Positions 1,317 through 59,810 of a stretch of 64,000 nt of DNA are shown piece after piece. The notes under the pieces are model-generated. The model worked only from the letters and a program-made list of their open reading frames with translations, ran no database searches and was not told the origin of the DNA. Made by a program: the position numbers and the translations under genes. Source of the DNA: Gautieria morchelliformis (lineage: Eukaryota > Basidiomycota > Agaricomycetes > Gomphales > Gomphaceae); assembly GCA_015179125.1 (NCBI GenBank), contig WHVA01000126.1, positions 1 to 64,000 on the forward strand. Direction: 5' to 3'. How positions within the stretch are numbered: the stretch's first letter is position 1; the number at the start of each line of letters is the position of its first letter.

Positions 1317-1440
1317 TTGGGGGTCCTTAGACTTTTCTCTTTGGATTTCCCCTTGTCAGGTGAGAATCCCCTCTCTTGTATGCTCTGTTCATTTATACAG
1401 ACTTTGGATTTCCCCTTGTCAGTTGTGTGGTAGTGTGATC
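1317..1440 (+). other. Junction between two gypsy elements, with a 21-bp direct repeat
   Basis: The string ctttggatttccccttgtcag occurs at about 1339 and again at about 1403. The stretch separates the end of the first element from the 5'-truncated second one. No gag, protease or 5' LTR of the second element is present here. Confidence 0.5.
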
Positions 1441-1477
1441 TCCACAACTAGCCAGGGTTGCCCTTACAGAAACCTTC

Positions 1478-4400
1478 ATGTTAAACATGCACCCTTCCAT
1501 CCCTGAGCCAAGTTCGCTTCGCGCTGTAGGCAACGCGCCAGCCCCGACCACACTCCTCCATGAAAGCCCTTTACTGAAGGACGAGTTAGAAATGTTCAGG
1601 GCTGTGGTACCAGAGGAGTACCACAACTTCTTCAATATCTTCTCGCGTGCTAAAGCCAAAGACCTGCCCCCACATCACCCTTATGACCACACCATCGAAA
1701 TCGAGAACGATGGTACACCACCTCACGGCCCCATATACCCACTCTCGAACAGCAAATTAGAGGCTCTCCGCGAATATCTCGAAGACATGCTTGGCAAGGG
1801 ATTTATCCGCTCCTCCCAATCACCCGGTGGCGCCCCTGTTGTCTTCGCGAAAAAGAAGGATGGCACACTGCGAATGTGCGTGGACTATCGAGGGCTGAAT
1901 CGTATCACGTGAAAGAACAAGTACCCTATCCCACTGATTCCGAGCCTTATTGACCAACTCAAAAGTGCGAACGTCTATACCAAATTCGATCTTCGCGCTG
2001 GGTTCAATAATGTTCGGATCACCTCTGGCCAAGAGTGGAAGACAGCCTTCTGAACACAATATGGGTCCTTCGAATATCTCGTCATGCCGTTCGGATTAAC
2101 GAATGCTCCAGCGACGTTCCAACACTTCATGAATGACATCGTCCAAGACATGGCTGACGTCTTCGTTGTAGTCTACCTCGATGACATCCTTATCTTCTCC
2201 AAGAACAGGGAAGACCACTTAGAGCATGTCCGAATGGTCCTCGCCCGTCTTCGAAAACACAACCTCTTCATAAAGCCCGAGAAGTGCCTTTTCCATTCGA
2301 ACTGGGTTGAGTTTCTCGGATTCATCATCTCTCCTGCTGGGGTCTCTATGGACATCGAAAAGACAGCTGCAATCACAAAGTGGCCTGCACCGACGAACGT
2401 TCGCGAAGTCCAATCATTCCTAGGCTTTGCAAACTTCTACAGAAGATTCATCATTTCGTTCTCCGACATCGTCCTGCCACTCACTCACCTGACCAGGAAG
2501 GATACTCCATTCGCCTGGACGCGAAGCAACAGGAGGCTTTCGAAGCACTCAAGGCCGCGTTCTCACAGGCCCCAGTCCTCATCCACTTCAACCCGAATAA
2601 CCCGATCGTCATCGAGACGGACACCTCCGATTACGCCATCGCCACCATCATCTCCCAGATCACCCCCTCCGATGGTGATATCCACCCGATCGCCTTTTAT
2701 TCACAAGGAATGGCACCTGCTGAAATGAACTACGAGATCTATGACAAGGAGCTGCTCGCCATCTTTTGTGCCTTCAAGCAATGGCAAAACTACCTCGAAG
2801 GGGCATCCCACGTCATGCTCGTCCTCTCCGACCACAAGAACCTTGAGTACTTCGCAACTACAAAACAGCTGACCCGACGACAAGTCCGTTGGTCCAAACA
2901 CCTGTCAGGGTTCAGCTATATCATTCGCTACCGAGCTGGGCGACTTGGCACAAAGCCGGATGCATTGACCCGTCGGGGCGACATGTACCCAAAAGGGGGG
3001 ATGGTGCTTACGCATTGGCGAATCCCCACAACTTCCAGTCAATGTTTAAGACTGGGAAACTCATTCACGCCATCATCCTTGACTCTGCATCACTGTTAAC
3101 ATCCATCCAACAGGGCCAGCTGACCGATCCCTTGTCCTCAGCCCAGATTACTCACCTTCAGTCTCAATCATTGGCAGTCACCCCTTCAAATGTGAAGTCA
3201 GACCCCGTCACTTGGAGACGATGGGAAAATGCTGTTATACAAACAGCGAACGTATGTCCCCGATCATAATGATATTCGCTTGGCCATCCTTCGCTCGCTG
3301 CATGATCATCAGTTAGCAGGCCACCCAGGGATCAGCAAAACAATGAAAAACATTCGGAGACAGTATCATTGGCCGAACATGTCCACCTTTGTCACCAACT
3401 ATATCAGCTCCTGTTCCAAGTGTCGCCACGCTAAATCCATTCATCACAAACCCTTCGGTCCACTTCGCTTTCTACCCATCAGCCAACAACCTTGGGATTC
3501 GATCTCCATGGACTTCATCGAAGGGCTCCCACCATCGGATGGGCACGATATGATCCTTGTCATTGTCGACAGGCTAACGAAGATGGCCCTGTTCATTCCA
3601 ACATTCTCAGACATCGATTCGGGAGACATCACCATGCTCTTCCTTCGACACGTATTCGCTAAACACGGTAGCCCCAGCGACATCATCTCTGATCGAGGGA
3701 AGCACTTCACATCCCGATTCTGGACCTCTCTCTGCGAAATCCTCGGCATCAAAGGCAACCTTTCTACAGCCTACCACCCCCAAACCGATGGACAGACCGA
3801 ACGAGTAAACCAAATCCTCGAGCAGTATCTCCGAGTCTATATCAACTACCAGCAGGACGATTGGGTCGACCTCTTGCCTCTTGCCGAATTCGCTTACAAC
3901 AACACAGCCCATTCGGCGACTAAGGTCACACCCTTCTTCGCCAACAAAGGTTTCCATCCCAAGCTCGAAGTATCGCTCACTTTGGTCGCTTCCGAGGACG
4001 CTTATCGCCAGTCGGCAGACCTCAAGGACCTTCACCAATACCTTCGAGATCAAATCAAGAAATCAATTATCCAGCACACTTCGGCCACAACCACTCACTG
4101 CATTCCGATCCCTGAGTTTCAGGTCGGCAACAGAGTATGGCTCGACTCGCGAAATATTCGCACAAAACGGCCTTCGAAGAAACTCGACCACCGAAGACTT
4201 GGCCCATATCCTATCACGGCTAAAATATCTTCTCATGCGTTTCGCTTAGGCTTACCACTGGAGCTTCGCCAGATCCACCCTGTGTTTCATGTATCCCTTC
4301 TCGAACCCGCCACGACATCTACCAGCCCAGGTCGATACACAGAACCCCCACCACCTATCGAAATTGACTCCGTGGATGAGTACGAGATCACGAAGATCCT

Positions 4401-4563
4401 CGATAGTCGCATTCGCCAGAAGCGATTGGAATACCTAGTGGAGTGGAAGGGATACGAACACACTCCCGACGCTACGTCTTGGGAACCCTCTTCGAATGTT
4501 ACTAATTCTGCTCGCAGACTCACCGAATTCCATGCGAAGTACCCCCAGAAACCCAAGGCTTAG
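1478..4563 (+). pseudogene. Ty3/gypsy pol (element G2): RT, RNase H, integrase, chromodomain, decayed
   Basis: Domain order is clear. Reverse transcriptase: [24 protein letters not shown] (about 1826-1899), [13 protein letters not shown] at 2084 and the YLDDILIF catalytic aspartates near 2175. RNase [11 protein letters not shown] and YDKELLAIFCAFKQW at 2610-2790. Integrase zinc-binding region: H..H..CSKCRHAK at 3300-3430. Integrase core: SMDFIEGLP, SDRGKHF, AYHPQTDGQTERVNQ. Chromodomain: YEITKILDSR, LVEWKGYEHTPDATSWEP to the stop at 4561. Two in-frame TGA codons (1910-1912 and near 2052) fall where family members have an arginine. Frameshifts lie near 2520, in the G-run near 2995, and near 3215. 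The integrase-chromodomain part from 3229 is open. Gag and protease are missing. Confidence 0.93.
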
Positions 4564-4989
4564 ACGTTTACCAAACCCAAGAAAACGATACTCTGTTCAC
4601 ATTCTACCTATAGATTCAACTCCCTTAATTAATCTCCTCTCAATCCTCACCCAACTCCCTTCGACTCATTCTACGCCTGCAACCGACGCCTCTTCGGACG
4701 CTCTGAGCTTCCCATCAACCTCTTCGCTCCCCCCTCGATGGCTAGTAAGGGTACTCGAGGGCTGCGCATCATACTTGGCCATCGTCCTGACCATACCCCT
4801 GGATATCCTTGCCCTCCTACCTTCGCCATCAGGGGCGAAGCAGATGCGCAGTCGCCTCACCCTGACAGGCTCTGCAGATTTCGCCGACCCAGGCATACCC
4901 CCGGCCGACTGCGAACCAGAGCAGGGAACCTCGCCGAGTACATCACCGAGTTAGCATGGATGTCACAAGAATACAGGAGGAAACTGTAC

Positions 4990-5408
4990 CTTCCGGGTCC
5001 TCTCTAGTCACCTCCCTTTCTTCGCACTCCTTCGACGTCAGCGTAAAGGTCGGAGCCAGAGTCGAATCAATATCCGCTTCTACAGGTACCGATTCCAATG
5101 TCGATACCGAGCTCTCCAACCACACCCTCGTTTTCTGAATCTCCACCGCCAGCTCGTCTACTTCGGATGGTCTCTCAAACGTGTGGTCAACCGCCTCCTC
5201 AGCCTGTAGCATTTTCCGAAGCTCCTCCTAGACCTCATCATTGAGCAAACGAAAGCTAATAAAGAAAAAGGCCGGTACTCACTTGAACTCCTGCCGCATC
5301 GACCAACCACTGCTCCACATCCCCTCGCGACTCTCCCCGAAGCTCTGGCCTAACCCTCGACATGACCTGCGACCGATCGAGGAGAACTGAGTACCCAGGT
5401 GTTGTCAT
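4990..5408 (-). pseudogene. Antisense spliced gene of the LTR-A gypsy family, copy 1 (first two exons)
   Basis: On the strand opposite to pol, an ATG at 5408 opens a 42-codon exon (5408-5283) ending GVQ and followed directly by GTGAGT. The intron (5228-5282, 55 bp) ends in TAG and the second exon (5227-4990) starts EELRK and ends in phase 1 at GTACAG. The copy in element G4 (51459-52997) has the same first intron position and phase and aligning protein: RPELRGE/RPDFQGE, VEQWLVD/VEQWVID, EELRK/AELRT, FERPSEVDEL/FEHPSDVDDL. DNA differences cluster at third codon positions. The zinc-cluster exon of copy 2 is not recognisable between 4563 and 4990, so this copy looks 3'-truncated or diverged. A TATA-like TTTAAAAA lies about 60-70 bp upstream of the ATG. 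Confidence 0.7.
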
Positions 5409-5620: not shown

Positions 5621-6652
5621 TGTCATGACCGGTTTATTTCTCCTACCGCACTACCTCTATGTTCCCCCTCGTCACTCCCTAGCATCTTCGCCAGAGTTCG
5701 CCGCACCCACCGACCACTCCCCCTCTACGTCCACTCTACCCACTGTTCGCCCCATTCTCCGAACCGCGATTCGCTGCTCGCGCATTTCATCAGCAGGCAC
5801 ACCATCGAATATGATCGATACCATTCACCCGGCATGATGGTTCATCATTAACCCCATCATCTTCTTAATCCAACCCCATTGGGTGTTCGTATGGCCAAAG
5901 TGTGATCGCAGGACGTCCCTTCCATAGGCCATGCGGGATCAACCCAGTAAACGAAGAGTCCGTGCAGGGTAGCGTGTATGCGGGTCCCAAGACATGGTTT
6001 TGTCCATAAATGCCTTCGCCACCTTTACTCTCCGTCGTTCCATGTTCTCCCTCTTCTCACATTCTATTGTATGTTTATTTCATCTATGTTGTATCATGAC
6101 TGCGCACCCCTATCCAACCCTGACTCATGACGGCCTCTTTCCTATTCGCTGATACCTTACGAGCATTCGATATAAGTAGTTTACATTCGCATGTATATTC
6201 CCCAGTTCAATTATCATACGTCGTTCATCTTGTGCAAATTTGACCTCGCTGTGGCCATCATCTTAAGCCTTCTCTTGGAGATTTCCATCTTCGACTAGCA
6301 GAGGACTTAGGCGCCACTGGTGAGTTCTCATACTTCGCCTTCGTTACCTTAGCCTTTGAACCATTTTCTGCGCTGTTGGCGAAGGGCTCCGAAAGGGCAC
6401 CTTCGCCAGCGAAGGGATTGTCGAGACTTAGACAGCCCTTCGGTGAGACCTTGCACGTTACATCGTCAAGAGCCACGGGCTATTTCGCTATGACTGTAGA
6501 TAGGGTGAGCCCCGTTTAGGCAAACCCTCTTACCTTGTGAACATTCATTGGTTCACCTATTCGCCGAACGGCATACTTATTCGCACAAGCTATTCGGGCA
6601 TTCGCTGTGTTCACTAATACACGATATTAACGCCTGAAAACCAATCTTGACA
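5621..6652 (+). repeat. LTR-A copy 1: 3' LTR of element G2
   Basis: Starts TGTCATGAC and ends CAATCTTGACA, with the short terminal inverted repeat TGTCA/TGACA; 1032 bp. The same sequence recurs in whole or part at least eight more times in this window in both orientations, which fixes the ends. A TATA-like gatataag lies near 6168. Confidence 0.9.
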
Positions 6653-40290: not shown

Positions 40291-40294
40291 CCTA

Positions 40295-41791: not shown

Positions 41792-42032
41792 TGTAACCGT
41801 CACTACGTCGTATTAGAATTGCCATAGTTTGGTCGAGTTCTACTGCCTTGTGATAACACAATTAATAAGCCACCCATCTTACACAAATGTCAACATGTGA
41901 TATATGGGTACTAAGAGTCTCGAATATTTACAGGTAATTGGTCTGATCTTATATATGTTTTCCTCATTCTATCTTTGGTTCGGTCGGAGTCTGTAAGGGC
42001 TCGATGTTAGTAAGCTAGCCCAGATCCTTACA
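41792..42032 (-). repeat. LTR-B related LTR, reverse orientation
   Basis: On the minus strand it starts TGTAAGGATCTGGGCTAGC and ends CGGTTACA, about 241 bp. It matches the LTR at 38506 closely over its first half and more loosely afterwards. No gag of the same family follows, so it may be a solo or orphan LTR. Confidence 0.6.
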
Positions 42033-42424
42033 GTCATCAACGCGTCAGTGCACGGAAGTGCCGCCCGGGAGCTCCAGATCCCAACAGTATGTCTCACTGG
42101 CTCACAAGGATAATGGCTTTACTCCATCATTTATCCACATCCCCACTTATGCACCTAGCTTATCACTGGTGTACATGGATCATGGTGATACCATACCACT
42201 TGTACCTACGAAGTGAATTGATTTTAGATACTGTAGCCACTCCATAGCCATCATCCCCAGATGATATGCTTGTCCTAGGGCTTAAGCTCCTTTCAACTGT
42301 GTTAATGCTAGTTTTTCTGCTCTTTACGCTGTCGGAACCAGACCAACTGTAAAATGATCAGTCAACTCACCGAAATAAATGTTCCTGTAAATGCCAATTA
42401 TATCCTTGGACAACCAACTTAATT
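42033..42424. other. 3' flank of the F-box gene
   Basis: No gene seen. It contains the 11-bp string aagtgccgccc (42056-42066), also present at 38481-38491 beside the other LTR-B copy. Confidence 0.4.
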
Positions 42425-43758: not shown

Positions 43759-45379
43759 TTCAGGATGTGTTGGCTTGGCGCTGAACGGCGAAGCTAAGTA
43801 CCCAGAATCTGAGGTGTAACGTGCCTCAGATATCCCGCTTGGATATGTATCAGTATGTACTCACCCCCACCGTGGAAGACTATTCGTAGTCCTAAATCCC
43901 TATGAAATAACTGTGCAAAGTTAGTGCGCGTGCGGAAAGAGAGCTGAGGCGTGACGTGTGTCACGGTGTTGACGCGAGTGCTGACGTTGTAGCGGCCCTA
44001 GCCGGTATTCAGCGAACGGCAGTGTGCTGAAGCATGGTTGCGCGTGGGTAGTCAGTTCATTTCACGGAAATACCGTACGTACACCATCCCACCTTGGACC
44101 CGTAGCCAGATCTTCCGTCGTTATATGTTCCCGTCCACCTCTCCGTGCCTGGCCCAGGTCCTTCTATTACATCTCCGTCCCCACCCCTGCGGGAAATGAT
44201 CGAATATCTGGCTTGCTGACCCGTCATCACACCCCGGCGAGTCGGATACCCACACAACATCTGCCATTACTAAACCATCCTCGTCCCGTCACACCACGCT
44301 CTCCACGGGGACGTCTATCATAGTAAGTATGGCCCGGTCACACAAGCTGTAGCGTACTTCGTGATTGCGTGTCACCCGATCCTATACCCACGTCCGAGCG
44401 CATTCCGAAGAATCACAGCGACAGACGCCAAGCCTGCGGCCCAAATGTCATGTCTCCCATGACCTCAACGTCCCACCCTAGGCAACGATGTCACTATCTA
44501 ACAGCCCGGAGAACAATCAAAATAACAATACCTGTACCACGGGCGATGTTTGCCTGAAATAATATGTCCCAGATCAGGCCGGAGTCACGGTGCGGGGACG
44601 ACGCGCACTAAGTAACTCTGCCTCGGAGGCGGGGAGAAATGATACGCTCATGTCTGAGTTCACAGGACGAGATGAAAGAGTTTGAGAGCAAAACATGTCT
44701 TTGCTCTCAAAGTCTTTCGCCCCTTCACCCGAGATAACGCGACCCACCAGCGTACCGATGGGGTCTGGCGTTCGAGACGAGCTGCCTGGAAGAGTGTACC
44801 AGTTAGAATCATGGTAGTTGTTTCAGATCAGAGAGGAAGACACCAAGTATTAATAGGCCGACACTACGGTGCAGATTCGTTCGTCAAGGGTACTTACATC
44901 ATCGAGGAGTATATGAATTAGAGCGGGCAGGTCAGAGAGCAAAGCACGTAGGTACCGCGCGCGTAGGTTCGTTCGATTGTGGTGATGCCCTTACTGCGTG
45001 AATCGTAGCTGGCTTTTGCGTGAATACTTGCGTCGTGCACCCTTCATAGCAGGTCCACTTATTCCGAACCACGTACGGTGTGCCGAAGTCTGGCAATGTG
45101 TTGCTGCCATGCTGGAGGATCGTCCTATGCCAGTCCCAACCCTCGAAAAACAGCCACAGCTCATATCAACGCGGCCCAACGCAAAGCAATACCCCACACT
45201 GTAGGAAGAATGGGCACTTAAAATAAGTACTTTTTGCACTAGTACTTATTTTCAGTAGCTTTTTTCACCCCAAAATCAGTTTCAAGGAAATAATTTTAGC
45301 TAACACCAAAATTAACTACATTTACGCACTTAAATTAGGCTACCCAAATGCAGCAGTCCAAGTCACTGTAGTACGCCGT
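43759..45379. other. Gene-poor region with two perfect hairpins
   Basis: No reading frame with recognisable domains. Hairpins: tttgagagcaaa/tttgctctcaaa at 44681-44711 with a 7-base loop, and aaaataagtact/agtacttatttt at 45220-45252. Confidence 0.5.
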
Positions 45380-46629
45380 TGTCATGGCCCGTTTATTTCT
45401 CATACTTGCATACTCTGTCCTCCCATTCCTCACTCCACCTCCGTGTTCGCTCCGATCGCCCTTGCCCTGTTCGGCGACCGATCTTCGCTGTTCGTGCCAC
45501 TCACCCTAGCCACGCCATCAATGCATGATCGACGTCTTTGGACCGACTTGGTGGTTCATCACTGGTCCTATCACCTCCTCCGCTCAACCCTCTTCCGATG
45601 TTGTTCCTATGATCGGATTGTCACAACTCGTGTATTTCCTGCACCTAGTTATCCCCATTTCCCCTTTTGCCATACCTCCTCCGCTTTCGCTCGGCTTCGC
45701 CCCTCACTTTGACCACTCTGCCCTTCGCTGCATTCGCCGAACGACTATTCGCTGCTCGCATCATTCTCCAGCAGGCACGCCATCAAACATGATTGATGTC
45801 CCCTATCCGGTATGATGGCTTAGCACTAGTCCCATCAGCTTCTCAAATCAACTCCTTTGGGTGTTCATATGGCCAGGATGCGTTCGCGGGACGTCCCGTC
45901 CATAGGTCGTGTGGGATCAACCCAGTAGACGAAGAGTCCATGCAGGGTAGCATGTATGCAGGTCCCAAGACGTGGTTTCGTACATAAGTGCATTTGCCAC
46001 CCTTATTCTCTGTCGTTTCATGTTCGCACTCCTCCCTCACTCTATTGTATGTTTATTCCATCTATTCCATGTCATGACTGCGCACCCCTATCCAACCCTG
46101 ACTCACGATGGCCTCATCCCTATTCGCTGATACCTTACGAGCATTCGATATACGTAGTTTACATTCGCAGGTATATTCCTCAGTTCAATTATCATACATC
46201 GTCCATATTGTGCAAACTTGACCTCGCTGTGATCATCATCTTGAGCCTTCTCCTGGAGATTCCTATCTTCAACCAGAAGAGGACTTAGGCATCACTGGTG
46301 AGTTCTCATACTTCATCTTCGTTACCTTAGCCTTCGAACTATTTTCTGCACTGTCGGCGAAGGGCTCCGAAGGAGCACCTTCGCCGGCAAAGGGATTGTC
46401 GCGACTTAGACAGCCCTTCCGTGACACCTTGTACGTTACATCGTCAAGTGCCACAGGCTATTTCACTATGACTGTAGATAGGGCGAGATCTGTTCGGGCA
46501 ACCCTCTTATCTTGTGAACATTTATTGGTTCACCTATTCGCCGAACGGCATACTTATTCGCACAAGTTATTCGGGCATTCACTGTGTTCACTAATACACG
46601 ATATTAACGCCTAAAAACCAATCTTGACA
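45380..46629 (+). repeat. LTR-A copy 4: 5' LTR of G4
   Basis: 1250 bp from TGTCATGGCC to CAATCTTGACA; followed by the internal sequence gtataattgaactaac, a possible primer-binding region. Confidence 0.9.
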
Positions 46630-46675
46630 GTATAATTGAACTAACAGCTACAGTCAAAGCATTCCCCTATTTTTC

Positions 46676-49065
46676 ATGTCATCTACACAACAAGAAAACC
46701 CTGTTGTCCATAGAACTCGCTCGACAGGTCCAGTTCCTACTCCAGCACCACTCCAGAGGCGAACAGCTTCCATCTCATTCCCTTCGCAAAACCCCACAGA
46801 AGACATCATCCCTTTCTCCCACCTCGTCACCATATCTGCATCTCAGCCTACACCGCACCATCCAGTCCCTGAACACGCATCACCGCCTCACTTCGACATT
46901 CAACGGCAGCTGACTCCAGGCGAACAGCACTTCTCCCCTCAGCGACCACTTTCAGCCAGTACTCCCATATCTAGTCACAGGCCCAGTGCCGATTCTTCAC
47001 GCCACTTATTGGCCCCTAATTCACCCAGCGGTCGCCCACAGAACCCTAGCCCATTTCAAGAACCTTATCCTTCTAGGACCCCTCGGATTGTCGGTGCTTC
47101 AGGACTCCGATTACAATCAGCCTTCGCACGACCCCACTTGCCACCTGCTTCGCCTAGTCATACTCCGAATCCTTTTCTCGATGTGCACTACCCCCAGCCT
47201 ACACCTCCTCTCAATTCTAGGCATACCACCCCTGTACAAGTGGAATCTCAGGCTCACACACCTGCTTCGCACAATTCATCATCTCATTCACATCACTCAC
47301 ATGCTTCTTCGCACTATTCGCAGGCTCTTCACAGTCCTCACCATTCGGTATATAGTGACCATACTCGAGTCAGTTCTCAACAGACTCCCCCTCACGAGGC
47401 ACCTTTAGCAGACCAGGGACATCACACTGACCCTGCGCCCGAACAACATCTTGGCTATCCCGTTAGTGGCATGCCCTATTATGATCCGAATGCTTTGCCA
47501 TTCGGAGGTGCCCCACCTCCATTCGCAGGGCAACCTCACCCGTTTGCAGGACAACCCTGTACCAACCTCCAGCCCAGATTCCTGCCCCACCTGGCGGGCC
47601 TGAGCCTCTTCTATTCGCAGGACAACTTGACCCCTTCGCAGGACAACCTCCTCCGCAGCAGCCTCTGATCCAGATTCCTGCCCCACCTGGTGGGCCTGCG
47701 CCTCTTCCATTCGCAGGACAACTTCACCCCTTCGCAGGACAGCCTCCCCTGCAACCGCCTCTGGCCCAGATTCCTGCCCCACCCAGCGGGCCTGTGCCCC
47801 TTCCATTCATGGGACAACCTCTCCCCCCTTCGCGGACAACCTCCCCCGCAACAGCCCCCGGCCCAGATTCCTGCCCCACCTGGTGGACCTGCACCTTTTC
47901 CATTCGCAGGACAACCTCACCCCTTCGCAGGATGACCTCCCCCACAGCAGCCTCCGGCACAGATTCCTGCCCCACCTCGTGGGCCTGTACCGCCTCCTCC
48001 ACCACCTCTCGGGCCACCATTTCCCCATTTTGGAGTACCTCCGATCAGGCCTCCCGGGCCACCAGGGCCCCCTGGACCTCCTGGCCCATCTCCACTCCCT
48101 GGTGGAGGGCCTTGGCCGCAACCAGGGTTCCCATGGAACCCCTATTATCCCTTTCCTTTCGCCTACCCTCAGGCCGACCCTGATGGTGATTCCGATGCTG
48201 CGAAGCCTGACAAATTCACAGGGAAAGAACCTCGCCTTCTCCGAACATTCATCGCTAGTTGTATTATGGTCTTCGACAACAAGCCCCGAAAGTTCCAGCA
48301 GGAGCGACAGCGAGTCTCCTACACAGCATCCTACCTCAGCGACATTGCCTTGATCTGGTGGCAACCTTTTCTCATTCAGGTCCCAGAGCCTCCCATTCGG
48401 AGCAACTGGCTTATCTTTGTTGACGAACTTAACCATCTTTTTGGTCAGGCCGACATCATCCAGGTGTCCGAGCGAGCTATTCGCAGGCTCAAGATGCTCG
48501 ACACCCATCGTGTCAATCACCACATGACCACATTTGCTGAGTTGTCCTCTTACGTCGAGTGGAACGATGCTGCCCTTTACGACGCTTTCTACAACAGCCT
48601 CGCCGAGCGCATCAAAGACCACATGCTCTCCTACAAACGTCCCGAAAGCCTCAACGATCTCAAACGTCAGGCGGCTCTTCGCATCGACAATCGCTACTGG
48701 GAGCGCCAAGGCGAAAAGCAGATTACAACCTCTATTCGTCCCCCTTCCTCTTCCGAACCTTCTTCTACACTACGTGCTAACGCTCGACCCAGACCCTCAG
48801 CTGCAGCCAAGCCCGACGAACAGAAAGATCTTTCCAGTATCCTCGATGCCACTGGACGTCTGACTAAAGCCGAGAAAGATTGACGAAAAACCAAAGGCCT
48901 TTGCCCTTATTGCGGCGAACCCCCCACACATCACACGAAGGAGTGCCGCTTTCAGGAGTCTGCCTCAACCACTGGCAGGGCTATCTTCACCCTTGAAGGC
49001 AACCCTCAGGTTGCGATTCTCAAAGAGGTTCCCGAAGATAGCGAAAGCTCCCCCGCGGAAGATTA
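46676..49065 (+). pseudogene. G4 gag with Pro-rich minisatellite and CCHC knuckle
   Basis: Starts MSSTQQENPVVHRTRSTG. A long Ser/His/Pro-rich region is followed by a 96-bp repeat coding PFAGQ...QIPAPPGGP, then a PPGPPGP stretch and the capsid domain (KPDKFTGKEPRLLRTFI, YLSDIALIWWQPFL, YKRPESLNDLKRQA). The nucleocapsid knuckle is CPYCGEPPTHHTKEC. Frameshifts lie within the repeat (stop at 47666-47668; the main frame is regained by 48266) and an in-frame TGA lies at 48881-48883 just before the knuckle. Role in the family: packaging of element RNA. Confidence 0.85.
47520..47990 (+). repeat. 96-bp minisatellite in gag, about five units
   Basis: The landmark cagattcctgccccacc occurs at 47575, 47671, 47767, 47864 and 47960, spacings 96, 96, 97 and 96. 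The one-base expansion in the third interval shifts the frame. Confidence 0.9.
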
Positions 49066-49079
49066 GCTCGCGATCCCTC

Positions 49080-49766
49080 TGTGGTGTTAACAATGGATCG
49101 CTTTACTCCTTTTAACAACGACCCTACCCACTCTGTACAATCCCTGTATCTGTTCGCTTTGACTATCCTGTCCCCCCTTCATCTCTCCCCAGCCATGTAC
49201 ACATTCTCGGTCTCTAATTCCTTCCTACTCTCATCAACTCTGGTGCCACTCCGAATTTCATTGATAACTTGTTCCTCTCTCATCCTAGTTCTTAAAAAAT
49301 CCATCGCCCTGACTACCAAACAATGTCTCCTCTTCCTTTTCTTTCCCAGTACACTAGCTACTACATATCTCGTTCATCGAACACGTAGATATTCGTTTCA
49401 TCAACTCCCCTTCAACGGATATTTTCGCCACCTGGAACAAAGCTACACTCTTCAGGTTACCTTCAAACACGCATTCCGAATCCTTGTCCCTGCTATCCTC
49501 GGGCTGCTTCCCAAACACAGCGATTGGACCCCCCTCCAACATCTCGGTCCTTCCACCAGGTGTCACTTCTTCGCCCTTTCCTATCCCGAATCTTCCTGTT
49601 TTCACACAGACGTTTGACGTGGACGGCAAACTATTACCTACCTCAGCAAAGCCTATCGAGCATCACTCTGCTGAGTCCTCCATATCGCTGTTCAATACTT
49701 GTCCCCGCTATCCTTGGGCTACGCGCCGAACACAGCGATTGGACCACTCTATTTACACCTTGGTCC
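49080..49766 (+). pseudogene. G4 protease region, partly duplicated
   Basis: PAILGL...HSDWT segments recall the LG..WL..H.P.IDW end of gypsy proteases. This piece occurs twice: about 49476-49560, and 49690-49766 continuing at 51042 after the nested LTR. Both are followed by ggtccttccaccaggtgtc and tttgacgtgga, so there is an internal duplication of roughly 200 bp. Confidence 0.55.
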
Positions 49767-51041
49767 TGTCAAGATTGGTTTTCAGGCGTTAATATCGTGT
49801 ATTAGTGAACACAGCGAATGCCCGAATAGCTTGTGCGAATAAGTATGCCATTCGGTGAATAGGTGAACCAATGGATGTTCACAAGGTAAGAGGGTTTGCC
49901 TAAATGGGGCTCACCCTATCTACAGTCGTAGCGAAATAGCCCGTGACTCTTGACGATGTAACGTGCAAGGTGTCACGGAAGGGCTGTCTAAGTCGCGACA
50001 ATCCCTTCGCCGGTGAAGGTGCTCCTTCGGAGCCCTTCGCCAACAGCCCAGAAAATGGTTCGAAGGCTTAGGTAACGAAGATGAAGTATGAGAACTCACC
50101 AGTGATGCCTAAGTCCTTTGCTAGTCGAAGATGGGAATCTCCAAGAGAAGGCTTAAGATGATGACCACGGCAAGGTCAAAGCTGCACAAGATGAACGACG
50201 TATGATAATTGAACTGGGGAATATACATGTGAATGTAAACTACTTATATCAAATGCTCGTAAGGTATCAGCGAATAGGAAAGAGGCCGTCACAAGTCAGG
50301 GTTGGATAGGGGTGCGCAGCCATGATACAACATAGATGAAATAAACATACAATAGAATGTGAGAAGAGGGAGAACATGAAACGACGGAGGGTAAAGGTGG
50401 CGAAGGCACTTATGGACAAAACCATGTCTTGGGACCCGCATACATGCTACCCTGCACGGACTCTTGGTCTACTGGGTTGATTCCGCACGATATATGGAAA
50501 GGATGTCCTGCAAACATACTTTGACCATACGAACGCCCAATGGGGTTGGATTTAAGAAGACGATGGGGTTAATGATGAACCATCATGCCAGGTGAATGGT
50601 ATCGATCATTTTTGATGGTGTGCCTGCTGGCGAATGATGTGAGCGGTGAATAGCCGTTCGGCGAAATGCAAGGAAGGGCGAACAGAAGTGACATAGGGGA
50701 GGAGAGGTCGAGGTGGAGGGCGAAGCTGAGCGAACACTGAGGAGGAGTAGCGAAAGGGAAAATGGGGATACCAAGGTGCAGGAGATGCACAGGTCATGAC
50801 AACCCAACTATTAGAACACCATCGGAAGAGGGTCGAGCAGAGGAGGTGGTAGGCCCAGTGATAACTGCCGAGTCAGTCCCAAGACATTGATCGTGCGTTT
50901 GACGGCGCGGCTATGGTAGTTGGCATGAACAGCGAGAGTTGGTTGCCGAACATGACAATGGTGATCGGAACGAACACGAAGGTGGGGTGAGAAAATGGGA
51001 AAACTGAGCTTCTGAGTATGGGAAATAAACGCGTCATGACA
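49767..51041 (-). repeat. LTR-A copy 5: solo LTR nested in G4
   Basis: 1275 bp, reverse orientation, flanked by a perfect GGTCC target duplication (49762-49766 and 51042-51046). Confidence 0.95.
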
Positions 51042-51380
51042 GGTCCTTCCACCAGGTGTCGTTTCTTTTCTTCGCCCACTCCGGCTACGAACAGACGTTT
51101 GACGTGGATAGCGAACCATTCCGTCTTCCAACTTCATCCCGAACCATCCCAACGCATTTTACCCGTCGGGGCGACGTGTACCAAGAGGGGGGATGGGACT
51201 TGGGAGAACCCCCAAGCCTTTCATTCGGAGAACTTGAGGATCCCTTTGGCGTCCTTCGCATGACCTCACTTCCCATTCACCATCACTCCTAGTCGGAATC
51301 GCTCATAGCCACATTCACCAAGAGAACACGGCAACTTGCCTACTTTCACGCGAAGTCCCCGAAGAGTTCTAGGGCTTAGG
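51042..51380 (+). pseudogene. Collapsed pol of G4
   Basis: The protease tail runs directly into THFTRRGDVYQEGGWDLG, equivalent to the end of RNase H (G2: DALTRRGDMYPKGG), and then into TRQLAYFHAKSPK, equivalent to the last residues of pol (G2: ARRLTEFHAKYPQ). Reverse transcriptase, most of RNase H, integrase and chromodomain are deleted. Confidence 0.75.
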
Positions 51381-51446
51381 GCACCATAAAAGAGACAAAA
51401 CACACTTCTATGTTCACAATGATTACCACAACCAACTCTACTCTAT

Positions 51447-51452
51447 TTTATT
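51447..51452 (-). terminator. AATAAA polyadenylation signal of the antisense gene
   Basis: Minus strand AATAAA lies a few bases after the TAG stop of the antisense gene at 51459. It is within the usual range for a fungal transcript end. Confidence 0.45.
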
Positions 51453-51458
51453 AATTTC

Positions 51459-52997
51459 CTAATAGTCGCTTGGACTCCCTCTAGCTCTAAAATAGCCCCA
51501 TTCAACATGTTCAGTTTTACTGATAAATTCGTTCAGCTTCACGGACACATTCCTCATCAGGTCCTCTGACCTCTCCACCAGCTCCTCCACCTTCTCCTCA
51601 CCAACCATCGTAGACATTCGGGTACCTTCGAAGGTATCTGGAAATCAGCCGAAAAGATAGCAAAAGTAATAGAAGGGACTTACCAAGAATACCCTTTGAC
51701 GAGATCGAAGGATGGCCCACCGCTGAACTCTTATCCTCCACCTTGCCTTTCCCCTTACTCTTCGCCTCACCCTCTCGGGCGTCCTTCTCCTCCTTCACCT
51801 CATACTCTAGAGGGGGGACAACAACTCCACATCAGTTCGGATGGTGCGAGAGAGACTCTAGGAAAAATGGGCTTACCCTCAGGCAAGACACAGCCCTGTT
51901 TATCACGGATACATTGTCCACACATCTTCCTGACCAGTCCGCTACACGTATGGTTGTAGCGAAGGCACCTCCCGCACTTCGCAGACTTGATCACAGGCTT
52001 GGGCTACGATAGGGATTTGGGTTAATCCTGCGAACACCGGTGAAGACTAAGGATGCTTACCCCAATGTATATCTTCCACCCTAAGAGATAGGCATGATCG
52101 GGGTACCCTTGCTTCGCCACCGATTGTGGGACCTTATCGGATTCCGCCACCAGCGCATTTGCCCGACCCTTGCGACGCTGTGCAGGAGTGGGCTCGATCG
52201 CAACGATTTCGGGAGATGGGCTCTTAGCCGGTTGGGAGCCAGAGTCCATTCGGGCCTTCTTCGGCGTCAGGGCATCATCATGTTCATCATCGGATAACAG
52301 AAACATCAGTCGTCGCTTTGTACGAACGGCCTGGGTTGTGGGTATTGATCTGGATGATTCGGAGAATGTGACAGGGGGCTTGATCACAATAACAGTATCT
52401 TCAACAAATATTGTGTTAGCTGGATTCACAGAAAGGCAGTCTTCATTTACCTTTGGGCTCCCTCGCAGTACTCCCCTCGACCTCGGCCTCCTTCACAACA
52501 GCCCTCTCGCCCACGACTACCTTCCCTACACTACTCCTCTCCCCCTCGGACCCCTTCACTGCAGCCCCGTCGACCTCGGCTGCCTTCGCTGCAACTTCGC
52601 CTATCTCGGGCCCCTTCAAAAGACGTCACGACGCTGTGGGATCAGGGGTCGGATTCATCTCACTATCTAGGAAAGCTGGGCTAAGTGTAAAGACCAGACT
52701 TTCAAGCCACTCCTTCGACGGCTTCACTTCCTTCAACAAGTCGTCCACATCCGATGGATGCTCGAACGAAGGGTCGACAATCGCTTCCACATGCATCGCA
52801 GTCCGAAGCTCAGCCTACGAAACAGAGTGGTTAACAAGCATTCCAAGAGAAGCATCGCCACTCACCTGTATCCCCTCATCGATGACCCACTGTTCTACCT
52901 CCTCGCGCAACTCTCCTTGAAAGTCCGGGCGGACCTTCACCGACGTTCGTGCTCGCTCAATGAGTAAAGAGAGGAGGGCAGAGCCGTCAGAAGCCAT
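51459..52997 (-). CDS. Antisense spliced gene in gypsy element G4: Zn(II)2Cys6-like cluster protein
   Basis: Six exons on the strand opposite to gag/pol: 52997-52866, 52814-52451, 52398-52061, 52003-51877, 51806-51684, 51637-51459. The five introns are 46-70 bp, all GT...AG (GTGAGT, GTAAAT, GTAAGC, GTAAGC, GTAAGT), and every phase agrees, giving 420 codons plus TAG. Exon 4 has cysteines 288, 291, 298, 306, 309 and 316, spaced C-x2-C-x6-C-x7-C-x2-C-x6-C as in fungal zinc-cluster DNA-binding domains, although the usual basic run after the second cysteine is weak. Exon 3 has basic, possibly nuclear-localising stretches (TKRRLMF, TPKKARMD); exon 6 has a likely coiled coil (EEKVEELVERSEDLM). One internal TGA at 52626-52628 (codon 107) fits CGA-to-TGA decay. 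Exons 1-2 are conserved in G2. No transcript evidence is available. Confidence 0.7.
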
Positions 52998-53045
52998 GGG
53001 GTATCAAACGAGGGAAATGACCCTGTCGCCTCACGCCGCAATGCC

Positions 53046-53053
53046 TTTTAAAG
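53046..53053 (-). promoter_or_regulatory. TATA-like element of the antisense gene
   Basis: Minus strand ctttaaaaggcattgcggcg, about 50-55 bp before the ATG at 52997. The corresponding place in G2 has tttaaaaatgcggcg upstream of its ATG at 5408. Confidence 0.4.
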
Positions 53054-53178
53054 CCCTGGGCGTGGTCGTGAACGGACCATGCAGTAAGAGATCACATCGG
53101 GGAACCTATTACGTCTTCATGCCCCACCCCCATCCCAAGTTACTGCGTCGTTGGACTCGGAAGCTAGGAGGGGGGTAC

Positions 53179-54450
53179 TGTCATGACGTGTTTATTTCTC
53201 ATACTTGCATACTCTGTCCTCCCATTCCTCACTCCACCTCCGTGTTCGCTCCGATCACCCTTGCCCTGTTCAGCGACCGATCTTCACTGTTCGCGCCACT
53301 CACCCTAGCCATGTTATCAACACACGATCGACGTCTTTGGACCGACTTGGTGGTTCATCACTGGTCCTATCACCTCCTCCGCTCAACCCTCTTCCGATGT
53401 TGTTCCTATGATCGGATTGTCACAACTCGTGTATTTCCTGCACCTAGTTATCCCCATTTCCCCTTTTGCCATACCTCCTCCGCTTTCGCTCGGCTTCGCC
53501 CCTCACTTCGACCACTCCTCCCCTATGTCCTCTCCGTTCACCCTTCGCTGCATTCGCCGAACGACTATTTGCTGCTCGCATCATTCTCCAGCAGGCACGC
53601 CATCGAACATGATCGATGTCCCCTATCCGGTATGATGGCTTAGGACTAGTCCCATCAGCTTCTCGTATCAACCCCTTTGGGTGTTCATATGGCCAGGATG
53701 CGTTCGCGGGACGTCCTGTCCATAGGTCGTGTGGGATCAACCCAGTAGACGAAGAGTCCATGCAGGGTAGCATGTATGCAGGTCCCAAGACGTGGTTTCA
53801 TACATAAGTGCATTTGCCACCCTTATTCTCTGTCGTTTCATGTTCGCACTCCTCCCTCACTCTATTGTATGTTTATTCCATCTATTCCATGTCATGACTG
53901 CGCACCTCTATCCAACCCTGACTCACGAAGGCCTCATCCCTATTCTCTGATACCTTACAAGCATTGGATATACGTAGTTACATTCGCAGGTATATTCCTC
54001 AGTTCTCAATTATCATACGTCGTCCATATTGTGCAAACTTGACCTCGCTGTGATCATCGTCTTGAGCCTTCTCCTGGAGATTTCTATCTTCAACTAGAAG
54101 AGGACTTAAGCATCACTGGTGAGTTCTCATACTTCACCTTCATTACCTTAGCCTTCGAACTATTTTCTGTGCTGTTGGTGAAGGGCTCCGAAGGAGCACC
54201 TTCACCAGCGAAGGGATTGTTGCGACTTAGACAGCCCTTCCGTGACACCTTGCACGTTACATCGTCAAGTGCCATGGGCTATTTCGCTACAACTGTAGAT
54301 AGGGCGAGCTCCGTTCGGGCAACCCTCTTATCTTGTGAACATTTATTGGTTCACCTATTCGCCGAACGGCATACTTATTCGCACAAGTTATTCGGGCATT
54401 CACTGTGTTCACTAATACACGATATTAACGCCTAAAAACCAATCTTGACA
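53179..54450 (+). repeat. LTR-A copy 6: 3' LTR of G4
   Basis: 1272 bp, TGTCATGAC...CAATCTTGACA, preceded by the polypurine tract gctaggaggggggtac. Its right end abuts LINE coding sequence. Confidence 0.9.
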
Positions 54451-56829
54451 GTGGGTCACGATCATCCTCCGGGAGCCAGGCAAAGCCAGCTATGACGTGC
54501 CTAAAGCCTACTGGCCAATAGCGCTCCTCAACACCATTGGCAAGCTCCTGACAGCAATAGTATCAGAAGACCTGGTGTACATGACAGAGAAATACCATAT
54601 TCTACCTGCGAACCACCTTGGGGGGAGGCTGGGTGCACAACGACAGACTCCTTACACCTGGTTGTCAACAAAATCAAAGGGGCTTGGCGACGGAAAAAGG
54701 TAGCAGTAATGTTGTTCCTAGATATCGAGGGTGCCTTCCCAAACGCTGTCACGGACCGGCTCCTACATAACATGCGCAAGCAGCGGGTCCCAGAAGAATA
54801 TGGTTTATTTGTAGAAAGGATGCTGGCGAGCAGGTGAACGAAGCTCCACTTTGACGACTACACATCTGACTGGGTGGCGATAGACAATGGCATAGGGCAG
54901 GGGGACTCGCTATCTATGATTCTCTACTTATACTACAATGCTGACCTCTTAGACATCCCAGCTAGGAAAGGGCAGGCCGTGGTCGCCTTCATGGATGACA
55001 CAAACTTGTATGCAGAGGGGGACACCTACGAGGAGGCTTACGACAGTCTCAGGGGGATGCTGCTAAAGCCAGGGGGTGTGAAGGAGTGGACAGCTACCCA
55101 CAACTCAAGGTTCAAAAACACGAAATTCACAGTGGTGTGCTTTTCAAGGAGGAGGGTGCTGCACCCAACACGTGCAGGAAAAACAAAGCCGATGGCAAGA
55201 CCTAACTTCCTCTATGAAGACACAGATATCGAGCCGGCAAAGGCCCACAAGTTCCTAGGTGTCTTCCTGGATGAGGAGCTGCGCTGGAATATACAGGTGG
55301 AGAAAGCCATAAAAGCTGCTAAGTGGACCTTGCTCTTCCACAGATTGTCTAAGCCATCGACAGGTGTGCGCACTGGCCTAATGAGACAGCTGTACCGGGC
55401 GGTAGCTATCCCCAAATTTACATACGCTGCAGACACTTGGTTCACCCCAGTGAGGAGGCAGGAGGGATAAAAAAGGGCCAAGGGGTCGGTAGGTGTGGTG
55501 AAAAAACTAGCTTCAGTACAGAGGATAGCCACCATGGCTATTACCGGATCAATGAGGACAACAGCGACGGATGTCCTGGAAGCCCATGCCAATGTCATGC
55601 CCGTAGAGCTACTGATGCAGGAAGTGTGTCACCGGGCGGCTCTCCAACTCGTCACCTTACCAAAGGCCCACCCACTACACCGGCCGGCGTGCTCATGTGC
55701 TAGACATCTTGTCAAACGACACCCCTCCTCACTGCATCAACTACTCCATGCCTTCCACCTCGTTCCAGACGCCTATGAGAAAATCAAGCCAGCCCTGCAG
55801 CCACCCAAAGCGGCACAGCTACCACAGAGGTAGCATCCACCAGGGAGGAGTCCAAGGAGGAGGACATGAATGACACCGTGGAGGCCAAGGTCTATACAGA
55901 TAGGTCTGGCCTGGAACAGGTGGCGGGGCCGCAGCGGTCTTATACAAGGGAGGACGGAAGGTCAAGGTGGTGAGATATCACCTGGGCTCACTAGCTGACC
56001 ACACTACCTATGAGGCAGAGGCGATTGGTGTCATGCTAGCCCTGGAGCTCCTGTCAAGGGAGAAAGGGGTTAAGGAGGCGACGGTCCTGCTGGACAACCA
56101 GGCCATCATACAGTCCATTGGAAGCGCACGGTCCAGGCCAGCTCAGCACATCTTGGAGCACGCCAACAACATGGCTAACAAGGTCACTAGGCCAACACGA
56201 AAGTGCAGAGTCAGGCTCAAGGTCACATGGATCTCCGGACACAATGATGTGGAAGGGAATGAAGCGGCGGACTCAGAAGCAAGGAAAGTGGCTACAGTGG
56301 GTAGCATTCAGCAAAGTGAGCTCCCAGCCTTCTTGACATTGGAGCTGCTACCGTGCAGTGTTTCTGCTGCACGACATTGCTTTTGAATAGACCAGAGACA
56401 GGAGTGGCAGAGGCAGTGGATGGCCTCACCCCTCTTTGCCAGAATGGAGAAGATAGACGGGGTCTCCCCTCCAAGAGCTACTATGAGATGGTATCCGACT
56501 TCACCCGAGCTCAAACAAGTCTGATCACGCAACTACTAACGGGCCACATTCCCCTCAACAGCCACCTCCACAGAATCAAAAGAGCTACATCACCCCTATG
56601 CCCGGCATGCTCATCAGCCGACGAAACAGTGCACCAGTTTTTGTTCAACTGTTGAACCTACGAACACACCAGACACAAACTGTGTCGAAATATGGGGCGT
56701 AGGTCTAAATCTGTGAAGGCGCTTCTAGGGAGCACCAAGGGAATGGCAGCACTTTTATTCTATGTGGCAGATACAAAGCGGCTGGAGGGCACTTTTGGTG
56801 ATGTTACCCCTCGTATACCTGACAAGTGA
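54451..56829 (+). pseudogene. LINE ORF2 fragment: reverse transcriptase, RNase H, C-terminal zinc motif
   Basis: Begins inside the RT: AYWPIALLNTIGKLLTAIV, then after a frameshift near 54640 VAVMLFLDIEGAFPNA (motif A), IGQGDSLSMILYLYYNADLL (motif B) and AFMDDTNLY (motif C, MDD). RNase H: YEAEAIGVMLALEL, LLDNQAIIQSI, WISGHNDVEGNEAAD. The C-terminal part LLTGHIPLNSHLHRI...CPACSSADETVHQFLFNC is typical of the zinc motif ending many fungal LINEs. Stops: TGA near 54836, TAA near 55468, TAG near 55832, TGA near 56654, plus frame changes near 55860-55960. The endonuclease half is missing, cut at the LTR-A boundary. Confidence 0.9.
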
Positions 56830-57866: not shown

Positions 57867-58031
57867 CGAAGATAGTGCACAATGTAGATGTATGATATTA
57901 AACTAGGAATATACATGTGAATGTGGGCCACTTATACCAAATACATGTAAGGTATCAGTGAATGGGAGAGAGGCCATGATGGTCAGAACAGTACAGGAGG
58001 TATGGAGCTAAGAGCTAAGATACAGACACAC
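57867..58031 (-). repeat. Fragment of LTR-A, reverse
   Basis: Contains gatgtatgatatt.aact, atatacatgtgaatgt and gtaaggtatcagtgaat, which occur in that order in reverse LTR-A copies such as 24460-24545. Confidence 0.6.
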
Positions 58032-59810
58032 TGTCATGACCTATCTATTTCCCTTGCCTCACTGTCTCTACCTTCCCCCTCATCGCTCCTCCTGCAGGTT
58101 CACCTGAGTTCGCCCTTCCCTTCCACCATGCTGTCAAGATTGGTTTTTAGGCATTAATATCATGTATTAGTGAACACAGTGAATGCCCAAATAACTTGTG
58201 CGAATAAGTATGCCGTTCGGTGAATAGGTGAACCAATAAATGTTCACAAGATAAGAGGGTTGCCCGAACAGAGCTCGCCCTATCTACAGTCGTAGCGAAA
58301 TAGCCCGTGGCACTTGATGATGTAACGTGCAAGGTGTCACGGAAGGGCTGTCTAAGTAGCGACAATCCCTTCGCCGACAGCACAGAAAATAGTTCGAAGG
58401 CTAAGGTAACGAAGATGAAGTATGAGAACTCACCAGTGATGCCTAAGTCCTCTTCTGGTTGAAGATAGAAATCTCCAGGAGAAGGCTCAAGACGATGATC
58501 ACAGCGAGGTCAAGTTTGCACAAGATGGACGACGTATGATAATTGAACTAGGGGATATACATGTGAATGTAAACTACTTATATTGAATGCTCGTAAGGTA
58601 TCAGCGAATAGGAAAGAGGCCGTTGTGAGTCAGGGTTGGATAGGGGTGCGTAGCCATGATACAACATAGATGAAATAAACATACAATAGAGTGAAGGAGG
58701 AGTGCGAACATGAAACGACAGAGAGTAAAGGTGGCGAAGGCACTTATGTACGGAACCATGTCTTGGGACCTGCATATATGCTACCCTGCACGGACTCTTC
58801 ATCTACTGGGTTGATCCCACATGACCTACGGAAGGGACATCCCGCGAACACATCCTGGCCATATGAACACCCAAAGGGGCTGGATCGAGAAGCTGATGGG
58901 AGTAGTGACGAACCATCATACCGGGGAGGGGGTGTCAATCATGTTTTGATGGTGTGCCTGTTGGCGAATGATGTGAGCAGCAAATAGTCATTCGGCGAAA
59001 TGTGAGGAAGGGCCAACGGAGATGACATAGGGGAGGAGTGGTCGAAGTGGGGGGTGAAGCCGAGCGAACATGGGGGAGGAGTGGCGAAAGGGGAAATGGG
59101 GATAACAAGGTGCAGGAAATACACAAGTCATGACAATCTGATCATAGGAACACCATTGAAAGAGGGTTGATCAGAGGAGGTGATAGGCCCAGTGATGACT
59201 ATCAAGTCATTCCAAAGACGTCGATCATGCTTTGACGGCGTGGCTATGGTGAATGGTGCGAACAGCGAAGATCGGTCGCCAAACACGGCAAGGGCGATCA
59301 GAGCGAACACGGAGATGGAGTAGGGAATGGGAGAACCGAGCATCTGAGTATGGGAAATGAACGCGTCATGACACACGCCTCCTTGATATGCGCTCTATTC
59401 GTTCTTCGCCCCATTCACTGAATGGCCATTCGCTGCTCGCATCATTCGCCAGCAGGTACGCCATCAAACACAATCAACACCCTCTACCCGGCATGATGGT
59501 TCGTCACTGGCCCCACCATCTTCCCTATCCAACCCCTTTAGGTGTTCGTATGGCCGGAATGCAATGTCCTACCCGTAGATCATGTGGGATCAACCCAGCA
59601 GACGAAGAGTCCATGCAGGGTAGCGTATATGCAGGTCCCAAGGCATGTTTTCATATGTAAGTACCTTCGTCCCCTTTCCTCCCTGTCATTTCATGTTCGC
59701 ACTCCTCTTTCATTCTATTGTATCTGTGTTTCATCTATTTGTATCATGACTGCACACCCCCATCCAACCCTGACTCCAGACAGCCTCTTTCCTATTCGCT
59801 GATATCATAC
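58032..59810 (+). repeat. LTR-A copy 7: truncated and interrupted
   Basis: Starts TGTCATGACC at 58032, is interrupted at 58131 by copy 8, resumes at about 59379 and is cut at 59810 by copy 9. Its last few hundred bases are missing. Confidence 0.75.
58132..59373 (-). repeat. LTR-A copy 8: solo LTR nested in copy 7
   Basis: 1242 bp, reverse, flanked by catgc (58127-58131) and cacgc (59374-59378), a target duplication with one transition. Confidence 0.9.

What the first reader, a model, noticed from the sequence alone, without database searches (positions are those of the whole stretch)
51459..52997. A spliced antisense gene with a Zn(II)2Cys6-like motif inside a gypsy retrotransposon
Seen: six exons, five GT-AG introns of 46-70 bp with fully consistent phases, a start, a stop and AATAAA, all opposite to gag/pol and placed between the pol end and the 3' LTR. 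Cysteine spacing C-x2-C-x6-C-x7-C-x2-C-x6-C matches the zinc-cluster rule of fungal transcription factors, and a likely coiled coil follows. Known: antisense extra genes are described in some plant gypsy elements. Inference: the element carries its own DNA-binding regulator, perhaps acting on its LTR or on host silencing. An element-encoded zinc-cluster protein transcribed against the genomic strand would be unusual.
Basis: partly seen in the sequence, partly recalled or inferred. Interest (0 to 1): 0.9.

Follow-up and report, generated by a model that had tools for sequence, protein, structure and literature searches.

The report
Antisense spliced gene in fungal retrotransposons
A family of virus-like jumping elements in the false-truffle fungus Gautieria carries an extra, intron-containing gene on the opposite strand that natural selection has kept working, and many copies kept it although they lost their own copying enzymes, so it probably helps the elements control or spread themselves.

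Summary
An exon-4 search finds 91 copies in the genome. 4 of 28 copies examined (top hits, not a random sample) have an intact six-exon frame. dN/dS is 0.25 in the true frame against 1.05 in shifted same-strand frames; gag is 0.20. 47 of 91 copies have gag antisense on their 3' side. Two pol-less elements have paired LTRs and perfect 5-bp target duplications; one has a long open gag frame and an intact antisense gene. A diverged form, with no Cys-cluster match found, follows 67 of 103 integrase-chromodomain ends of related pol-bearing elements, always antisense. Cys spacing fits Zn2Cys6, but Pfam Zn_clus matches 0 of 30 members. Three protein searches found relatives only in Gautieria. Best reading: an element-encoded accessory protein, probably nuclear and nucleic-acid-binding; a new variant of the known antisense extra ORF (Grande, Retand, Boty brtn). 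No RNA or protein data.

The parts
52866..52997 (-). Antisense gene, exon 1 (ATG at 52997)
   Evidence: Spliced translation and relatives
52451..52814 (-). Exon 2; carries an in-frame TGA at 52628-52626 in this copy
52061..52398 (-). Exon 3 (basic stretches KKAR, RRKG)
51877..52003 (-). Exon 4, six-cysteine cluster C-x2-C-x6-C-x7-C-x2-C-x6-C; median dN/dS 0.18 over 28 pairs of copies
51684..51806 (-). Exon 5 (Lys/Glu-rich linker)
51443..51637 (-).
52998..53178 (-). Region between the gene start and the 3' LTR, with a TTTAAAAGG box upstream of the ATG; probable promoter (inferred)
   Evidence: a TTTAAA/TTAAAA/TATAAA box in 11 of 17 extracted copies, several of which do not reach this region
45380..46629 (+). 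5' LTR (TGTCATGG...TTGACA)
   Evidence: 94.1% identical to the 3' LTR
53179..54450 (+). 3' LTR
46640..48883 (+). gag (Retrotrans_gag), broken over several frames in this copy
48992..49753 (+). Protease-linker remnants, partly repeated
   Evidence: matches L025 element 1870-2168 and 2321-2533
49767..51041 (-). Inverted LTR of the same family inserted in the element
51157..51424 (+). Short remnants of RNase H end and pol end, marking the pol deletion
1439..4563 (+). Second element in the window: pol with RT, RNase H, integrase, SH3 and chromodomain (frames interrupted)
4829..5408 (-). Diverged antisense gene (form S) behind that pol: exon 1 5408-5283, exon 2 5227-4990; exon 3 unresolved
5621..6652 (+). 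3' LTR of the second element, same LTR family

Best explanation
A clade of chromodomain-bearing Ty3/Gypsy elements in Gautieria morchelliformis carries its own accessory gene between pol and the 3' LTR, on the opposite strand. SHOWN: the gene has six exons in its long form, is multicopy, is tied to these elements, and has evolved under purifying selection as a protein. It exists in two forms: a long one with a six-Cys cluster and a predicted C-terminal coiled coil (L), and a diverged one sharing exons 1-2 in which no Cys cluster was found (S). Among copies that could be placed, form L sits mostly in elements with gag but no detected pol, at least two of which inserted as units; form S follows pol in related elements of the same LTR family. 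INFERRED: the gene is transcribed from a promoter just inside the 3' LTR. Its introns survive retrotransposition because the genomic RNA carries the complement of the splice sites. The protein is a nuclear, nucleic-acid-binding accessory factor that regulates the element's own expression or helps its preintegration complex. In the pol-less elements it acts together with Gag, while enzymes are borrowed from pol-bearing relatives.
For: Multicopy and element-linked: 92 exon-4 matches, counted as 91 copies; 47 of 91 have gag on the opposite strand within 8 kb on the 3' side, 31 of those at 1.5-2.1 kb, where a full pol would not fit; in 10 of 20 fetched loci an LTR of the same family begins just beyond the gene's 5' end in the element's direction, and in an eleventh (L012) it abuts a truncated gene. 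Selection: median dN/dS 0.26 over 160 pairs with dS>0.3; 0.25 in the true frame against 1.05 in both shifted frames for 28 pairs; exon 4 0.18; gag core 0.20 over 45 pairs. Indels: WIN, L010 and L016 against L041 are in-frame in exons (one exception, WIN's frameshift), mostly not multiples of three in introns. Intact frames in 4 of 28 distinct copies. L041 and L043 have paired LTRs (96.7%, 95.4%) and 5-bp TSDs (GTAAT, CCGTG); L041 has a 662-codon open gag frame, no RT or integrase match and an intact antisense gene, and L043 is colinear with it. Five copies show two pol gaps around a short RNase H piece. Form S: 67 of 103 integrase-chromodomain hits have it downstream within 3 kb, all antisense, mostly about 587 bp away.
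Against: No RNA or protein evidence. Zn_clus unmatched (0 of 30). AF2 mean pLDDT 49, Cys region unreliable, no fold match. Form S has no detected Cys cluster. 36 of 91 exon-4 copies have neither a gag nor an integrase hit nearby; 3 copies have a gag hit on the 5' side and 2 on the 3' side on the same strand. The integrase search scored only 150 of 4217 candidates, so pol may be missed beside some form L copies. Gap edges differ among the five pol-less copies, so one common deletion is not proven. 24 of 28 examined copies are broken. L041's gag frame has a stretch that matches the window gag in another frame. One species only.
Confidence: 0.5

Rival explanations
1. Same element-encoded gene, but the protein acts in the particle or on RNA (Gag partner, RNA chaperone, packaging or nuclear import of cDNA) rather than as a DNA-binding regulator; the six Cys form a zinc knuckle-like module.
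For: Pol-less elements keep gag plus this gene; predicted coiled coil; Zn_clus profile not met; the Cys2-Cys3 loop lacks the basic residues of Gal4-type domains.
Against: Cys spacing matches the Zn2Cys6 rule; basic stretches near residues 160-205 of P0003 look like nuclear signals (by eye). Some plant analogues are reported as nuclear.
Confidence: 0.25
2. The antisense RNA, not the protein, matters: it makes dsRNA with the genomic RNA and tunes silencing.
For: Known idea for antisense transcripts of retroelements; sense and antisense transcripts would overlap.
Against: Protein-level constraint: dN/dS 0.25 against 1.05 in shifted frames, in-frame exon indels in the better-preserved copies, conserved splice sites. 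An RNA role could coexist.
Confidence: 0.07
3. A host zinc-cluster gene captured by an element; the element copies are relics.
For: Intron-rich structure typical of host genes; most examined copies broken (24 of 28).
Against: Three protein searches gave only Gautieria proteins; no antisense-gene copy among the listed Zn_clus hits; constraint held while the copies diverged to dS about 1; the form S gene sits at the same place in pol-bearing elements. A free-standing copy among the 36 unplaced ones was not excluded.
Confidence: 0.1
4. A narrower case of the best reading: a self-limiting or superinfection factor. The protein represses LTR transcription or competing relatives, comparable in role to HTLV-1 HBZ.
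For: Similar layout to antisense retroviral regulators (abstract of PMC10186651); pol-less and pol-bearing elements share an LTR family.
Against: No expression data; selection on a selfish element for self-repression needs special conditions.
Confidence: 0.15

Closest known systems
Boty-like elements of Botrytis cinerea with antisense gene brtn (Zhao et al. 2011, not read; seen in reference lists and in passages of other papers)
   Same: Fungal element with a chromodomain in gag-pol and an antisense extra gene, listed by a review among antisense ORFs between pol and the 3' LTR.
   Different: Whether brtn has introns or a Cys cluster could not be read here; sequence similarity not tested. Ascomycete, not Gomphales.
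Antisense aORF-3R of plant Gypsy elements: maize Grande gene23, rice RIRE2, Retand TRP28 ORF, PvRetro13
   Same: Antisense, between pol and 3' LTR, conserved like other element proteins, own promoter and nuclear product (Grande), putative DNA binding (TRP28), some carriers non-autonomous (Retand).
   Different: Here five introns, a six-Cys cluster with a predicted coiled coil, chromodomain elements of a basidiomycete, and elements with gag plus the antisense gene but no RT/RH/IN. 'Intron' has 0 occurrences in both papers, 'zinc' 0 in the Retand paper.
HTLV-1 HBZ, antisense retroviral regulator (abstract of PMC10186651; its splicing is recalled)
   Same: Antisense gene at the 3' end of an LTR element with a regulatory protein.
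   Different: Different virus family and protein; HBZ is driven from the 3' LTR, here the likely promoter lies just inside it.
Zn2Cys6 (Zn_clus, PF00172) transcription factors such as GAL4
   Same: Cys spacing fits the C-x2-C-x6-C-x(5-12)-C-x2-C-x(6-8)-C rule (rule recalled); a coiled coil is predicted, but far from the cluster.
   Different: Profile not matched, no basic C2-C3 loop, no proline in the linker, cluster in the middle of the protein.

Membership tests
[quoted passage not shown]
Antisense aORF-3R of LTR retrotransposons | Present in many copies and conserved like gag/pol proteins | tested here: met
   91 copies; dN/dS 0.25 against 0.20 for gag core
Antisense aORF-3R of LTR retrotransposons | Transcribed antisense from its own promoter | not testable with these tools
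   TATA-like box in 11 of 17 extracted copies, no RNA data
Zn2Cys6 (Zn_clus) protein | Six Cys with binuclear-cluster spacing | tested here: met
   in A3 (30 of the 56 protein hits, hand-chosen) four of the six Cys are invariant, two at 90% or more
Zn2Cys6 (Zn_clus) protein | Match to the Zn_clus profile | tested here: not met
   0 of 30 members at E<=10; none of the 79 listed genome hits is an antisense-gene copy
Zn2Cys6 (Zn_clus) protein | Profile-profile similarity to solved Zn2Cys6 domains | tested here: inconclusive
   hhalign 42% over 31 columns, mainly Cys
Zn2Cys6 (Zn_clus) protein | Basic C2-C3 loop and linker proline | tested here: not met
   LRYGHT loop and SGEAGKM linker against K12 and P18 invariant in five solved domains
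Ty3/Gypsy chromovirus | RT, RNase H, integrase and chromodomain in pol | tested here: met
Non-autonomous LTR retrotransposon | Several insertions with paired LTRs and TSD but no RT/IN | tested here: met
   L041; L043 by colinearity with L041

The most novel reading that the evidence does not exclude
The elements form a two-partner system. Pol-bearing elements carry a short antisense protein; pol-less satellites carry only Gag plus a long antisense protein that has a zinc-binding module and a coiled coil. With it the satellite steers expression, packaging or integration in its own favour, so the antisense gene is a satellite's competition factor, evolved inside a retroelement and able to keep introns because it lies on the non-genomic strand.
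Probability: 0.25. Interest if true: 0.82.

Novelty: new variant of a known kind. Interest (0 to 1): 0.62.

Why it matters
The function of antisense extra ORFs in LTR retrotransposons is unknown (stated). Here is a case with five conserved introns, strong purifying selection, and elements reduced to gag plus the antisense gene. That suggests which two proteins such an element keeps and makes the accessory role testable. It also shows a way for a retroelement to carry an intron-rich gene. TE annotation by ORF alone would miss it.

Tried and rejected
Pfam on the Cys exon, full proteins and a 30-member alignment: no family, only chance-level hits (Siva, Barwin, FR47 and others). PDB sequence searches with exon 4 and with the profile: nothing of use. 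AF2 on P0003 with 30 sequences: only the N-terminal helices (pLDDT about 67-83) and the C-terminal helix (70-81) are fair; Foldseek against PDB gave nothing below E 3, so I drew no fold conclusion. Viral contigs with exon 3: none. Other species: three protein searches gave only Gautieria; searches scored only the about 8000 candidates sharing most words, one search scored 54 candidates, so distant relatives may be missed.

A sense-strand reading of the gene region: the lowest sense-strand frame has dN/dS 0.37 (the mirror frame), the others 1.23 and 1.25, against 0.25 for the gene frame; rejected. Host-gene relic: rejected as the main reading (see rivals). Exact exon 3 of form S: my two trial acceptors give frames that differ from the conserved open frame; left open.

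Rows dropped before counts: of the 150 integrase matches (150 of 4217 candidates scored) I used the 103 with at least 70% identity. Of the gag matches (150 of 1596 candidates scored) I hand-picked 106; left out were the 35-40% ones (another gag group) and eight of 60-82%, which lie on contigs without an exon-4 match. Of (150 of 301 candidates scored, list cut) I used 87 exon-2 matches. (all 104 candidates scored) lists 92 matches; two at C880 were merged. A3 holds 30 of 56 protein hits. The 28 copies are top hits.

Full report
WHAT WAS CLAIMED AND WHAT IS THERE. The window is the first 64 kb of contig C145 of a 122-Mb genome. Protein searches name the source as Gautieria morchelliformis, an agaricomycete of the order Gomphales. 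On the minus strand between 52997 and about 51443 there are six exons and five GT-AG introns of 51, 52, 57, 70 and 46 nt. Exon 4 holds C-x2-C-x6-C-x7-C-x2-C-x6-C. This copy is not intact: exon 2 has an in-frame TGA (52628-52626) and the last exon is out of frame near its end relative to relatives. The public annotation has this locus as JB92DRAFT_3116429, 395 aa (P0001); it lacks the residues around the stop, which I read as an extra predicted intron.

THE ELEMENT AROUND IT. LTRs lie at 45380-46629 and 53179-54450 (94.1% identical, K2P 0.044) with no matching target duplication. gag (Retrotrans_gag) is broken over frames. RT and integrase pieces from a pol-bearing relative do not match window 40001-56000. 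Mapping on that relative (L025) leaves the protease linker, about 42 nt near the RNase H end, and about 80 nt at the pol end. An inverted LTR of the same family sits at 49767-51041.

THE FAMILY. A DNA search (40 of 130 candidates scored) finds relatives of the gene at 68-90% identity. A search with exon 4 alone gives 92 matches, which I count as 91 copies; all 104 candidates were scored and 23 of the 92 matches contain a stop. Of 20 fetched loci, 10 have an LTR of the same family beginning just beyond the gene's 5' end in the element's direction; in an eleventh (L012) it abuts a truncated gene. Of the 91 copies, 47 have a gag hit on the opposite strand within 8 kb of the gene's 3' side, 31 of them at 1.5-2.1 kb; 3 copies have a gag hit on the 5' side and 2 on the 3' side on the same strand; 6 have an integrase-chromodomain hit within 3 kb on the 3' side, opposite strand; 36 have neither.

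INTACT COPIES AND POL-LESS ELEMENTS. P0003 (386 aa) is encoded exactly by six exons at C826, with introns of 48, 53, 59, 69 and 47 nt. Among 28 distinct copies examined, 4 have an intact spliced frame with all splice sites: L041, L029, L037 and L042 (the output has 31 rows, of which L034, L035 and L043 repeat other loci). L041 is a pol-less element: LTRs 96.7% identical, 5-bp duplication GTAAT, a 662-codon open gag frame, no RT or integrase match, and the intact antisense gene. Its gag frame is not clearly normal throughout: L041 residues around 90-180 match the window gag in another frame. L043 is colinear with L041 at another place, with LTRs 95.4% identical and duplication CCGTG; its gag is broken and its antisense gene has a frameshift. 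Five copies (window, L010, L015, L020, L041) show two pol gaps around a short RNase H piece; the gap edges differ (right edges on L025 from 4154 to 4279 and from 6316 to 7011), and L020 keeps more of the pol end. I read this as one pol-deleted ancestor with later losses, mobilised in trans (inference).

SELECTION. By Nei-Gojobori counting, 160 pairs with dS above 0.3 have a median dN/dS of 0.26 (range 0.15-0.42); 30 closer pairs have 0.33. For 28 pairs among eight copies, the true frame gives 0.25 and the two shifted frames 1.05 each; exon 4 gives 0.18. On the sense strand the values are 1.25, 1.23 and 0.37; the last is the mirror frame. The gag core gives 0.20 over 45 pairs. Indels between the window, L010 or L016 and L041 are multiples of three in exons, apart from the window's frameshift, and mostly not in introns; more degenerate copies show broken exons and some lost splice sites. 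So the antisense reading was kept as a protein during element evolution.

A SECOND FORM. The window also holds a related element with RT, RNase H, integrase, SH3 and chromodomain and an LTR of the same family. Behind its pol, antisense, lies a diverged gene matching exons 1 and 2 of the family (44 and 47% identity, E 6e-13). The intron after exon 1 is at the same place and, with the donor I chose, exon 2 ends in the same phase. A search with these two exons, compared with 103 integrase-chromodomain hits, finds 67 with this gene within 3 kb downstream, all antisense, most about 587 bp away; 20 of 87 gene hits are not near a listed integrase hit. Together with the 6, 73 of 103 have an antisense gene. 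Several lie in long open pol frames (992, 935, 891 and 888 codons at C936, C818, C171 and C277). The following conserved frame of about 94 codons has no six-Cys cluster; its splice junction is unresolved.

WHAT THE PROTEIN MAY DO. No Pfam family of use in 30 members. The Cys spacing fits Zn2Cys6, but the profile, the basic loop and the linker proline are not met; hhalign against five solved domains is inconclusive (42%). AF2 supports N-terminal helices and a C-terminal helix read as a coiled coil; the middle is not predicted. Basic stretches near 160-205 would suit nuclear import (by eye). The best mechanism is a nuclear, nucleic-acid-binding accessory protein of the element. Evidence for nuclear action is by analogy only: Grande gene23 is nuclear and Retand TRP28 may bind DNA. 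A Gag-partner or RNA role is the main rival.

NOVELTY. [quoted passage not shown] passages of PMC8365987, and PMC4227169; abstract and passages of PMC11963269). PMC7264820 asks for attention to antisense and spliced transcripts. In searches I saw, in titles and abstract starts, no report of an intron-rich antisense gene with a Cys cluster, nor of this family in Gautieria; the library lacks most subscription papers, and Zhao et al. 2011 was not read. PMC7550596 names the species, but the two passages seen say nothing on this gene.

The L041 gag is now called an open frame rather than intact, the LTR count is 10 plus 1 of 20, and the shared pol deletion is put as a pattern with differing edges.

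Noticed in passing
window 47545-47997: Four tandem copies spaced about 96 nt in the Pro-rich part of gag.
   Followed up: no
window 8485-12603 (-): Copia-type element: Retrotran_gag_2, rve and RVT_2 in two adjacent open frames, flanked by a 306-bp direct repeat 8037-8342/12593-12898 at 98.4% identity, possibly its LTRs.
   Followed up: partly
window 57876-60841: Cluster of solo or partial LTRs of the same family in both orientations.
   Followed up: no
G000, 79 matches of PF00172: Several Zn_clus matches look repeated (many of about 38 codons with similar scores), perhaps another multicopy zinc-cluster family.
   Followed up: no
L018 2114-5485 (oriented, minus): Open frame of 1124 codons that looks like a Helitron helicase-type protein (by eye).
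   Followed up: no
L009 5219-6121 (oriented): His/Gly-rich tandem-repeat frame (HGDTH units), probably simple repeat rather than a gene.
   Followed up: no
L041 5536-6204 (oriented) and window 49487-49753: Protease-linker region is tandemly repeated in pol-less copies.
   Followed up: partly
window 46630-46655: Sequence after the 5' LTR (GTATAATTGAACTAACAG) does not look like a usual tRNA primer site; self-priming possible (inference).
   Followed up: no
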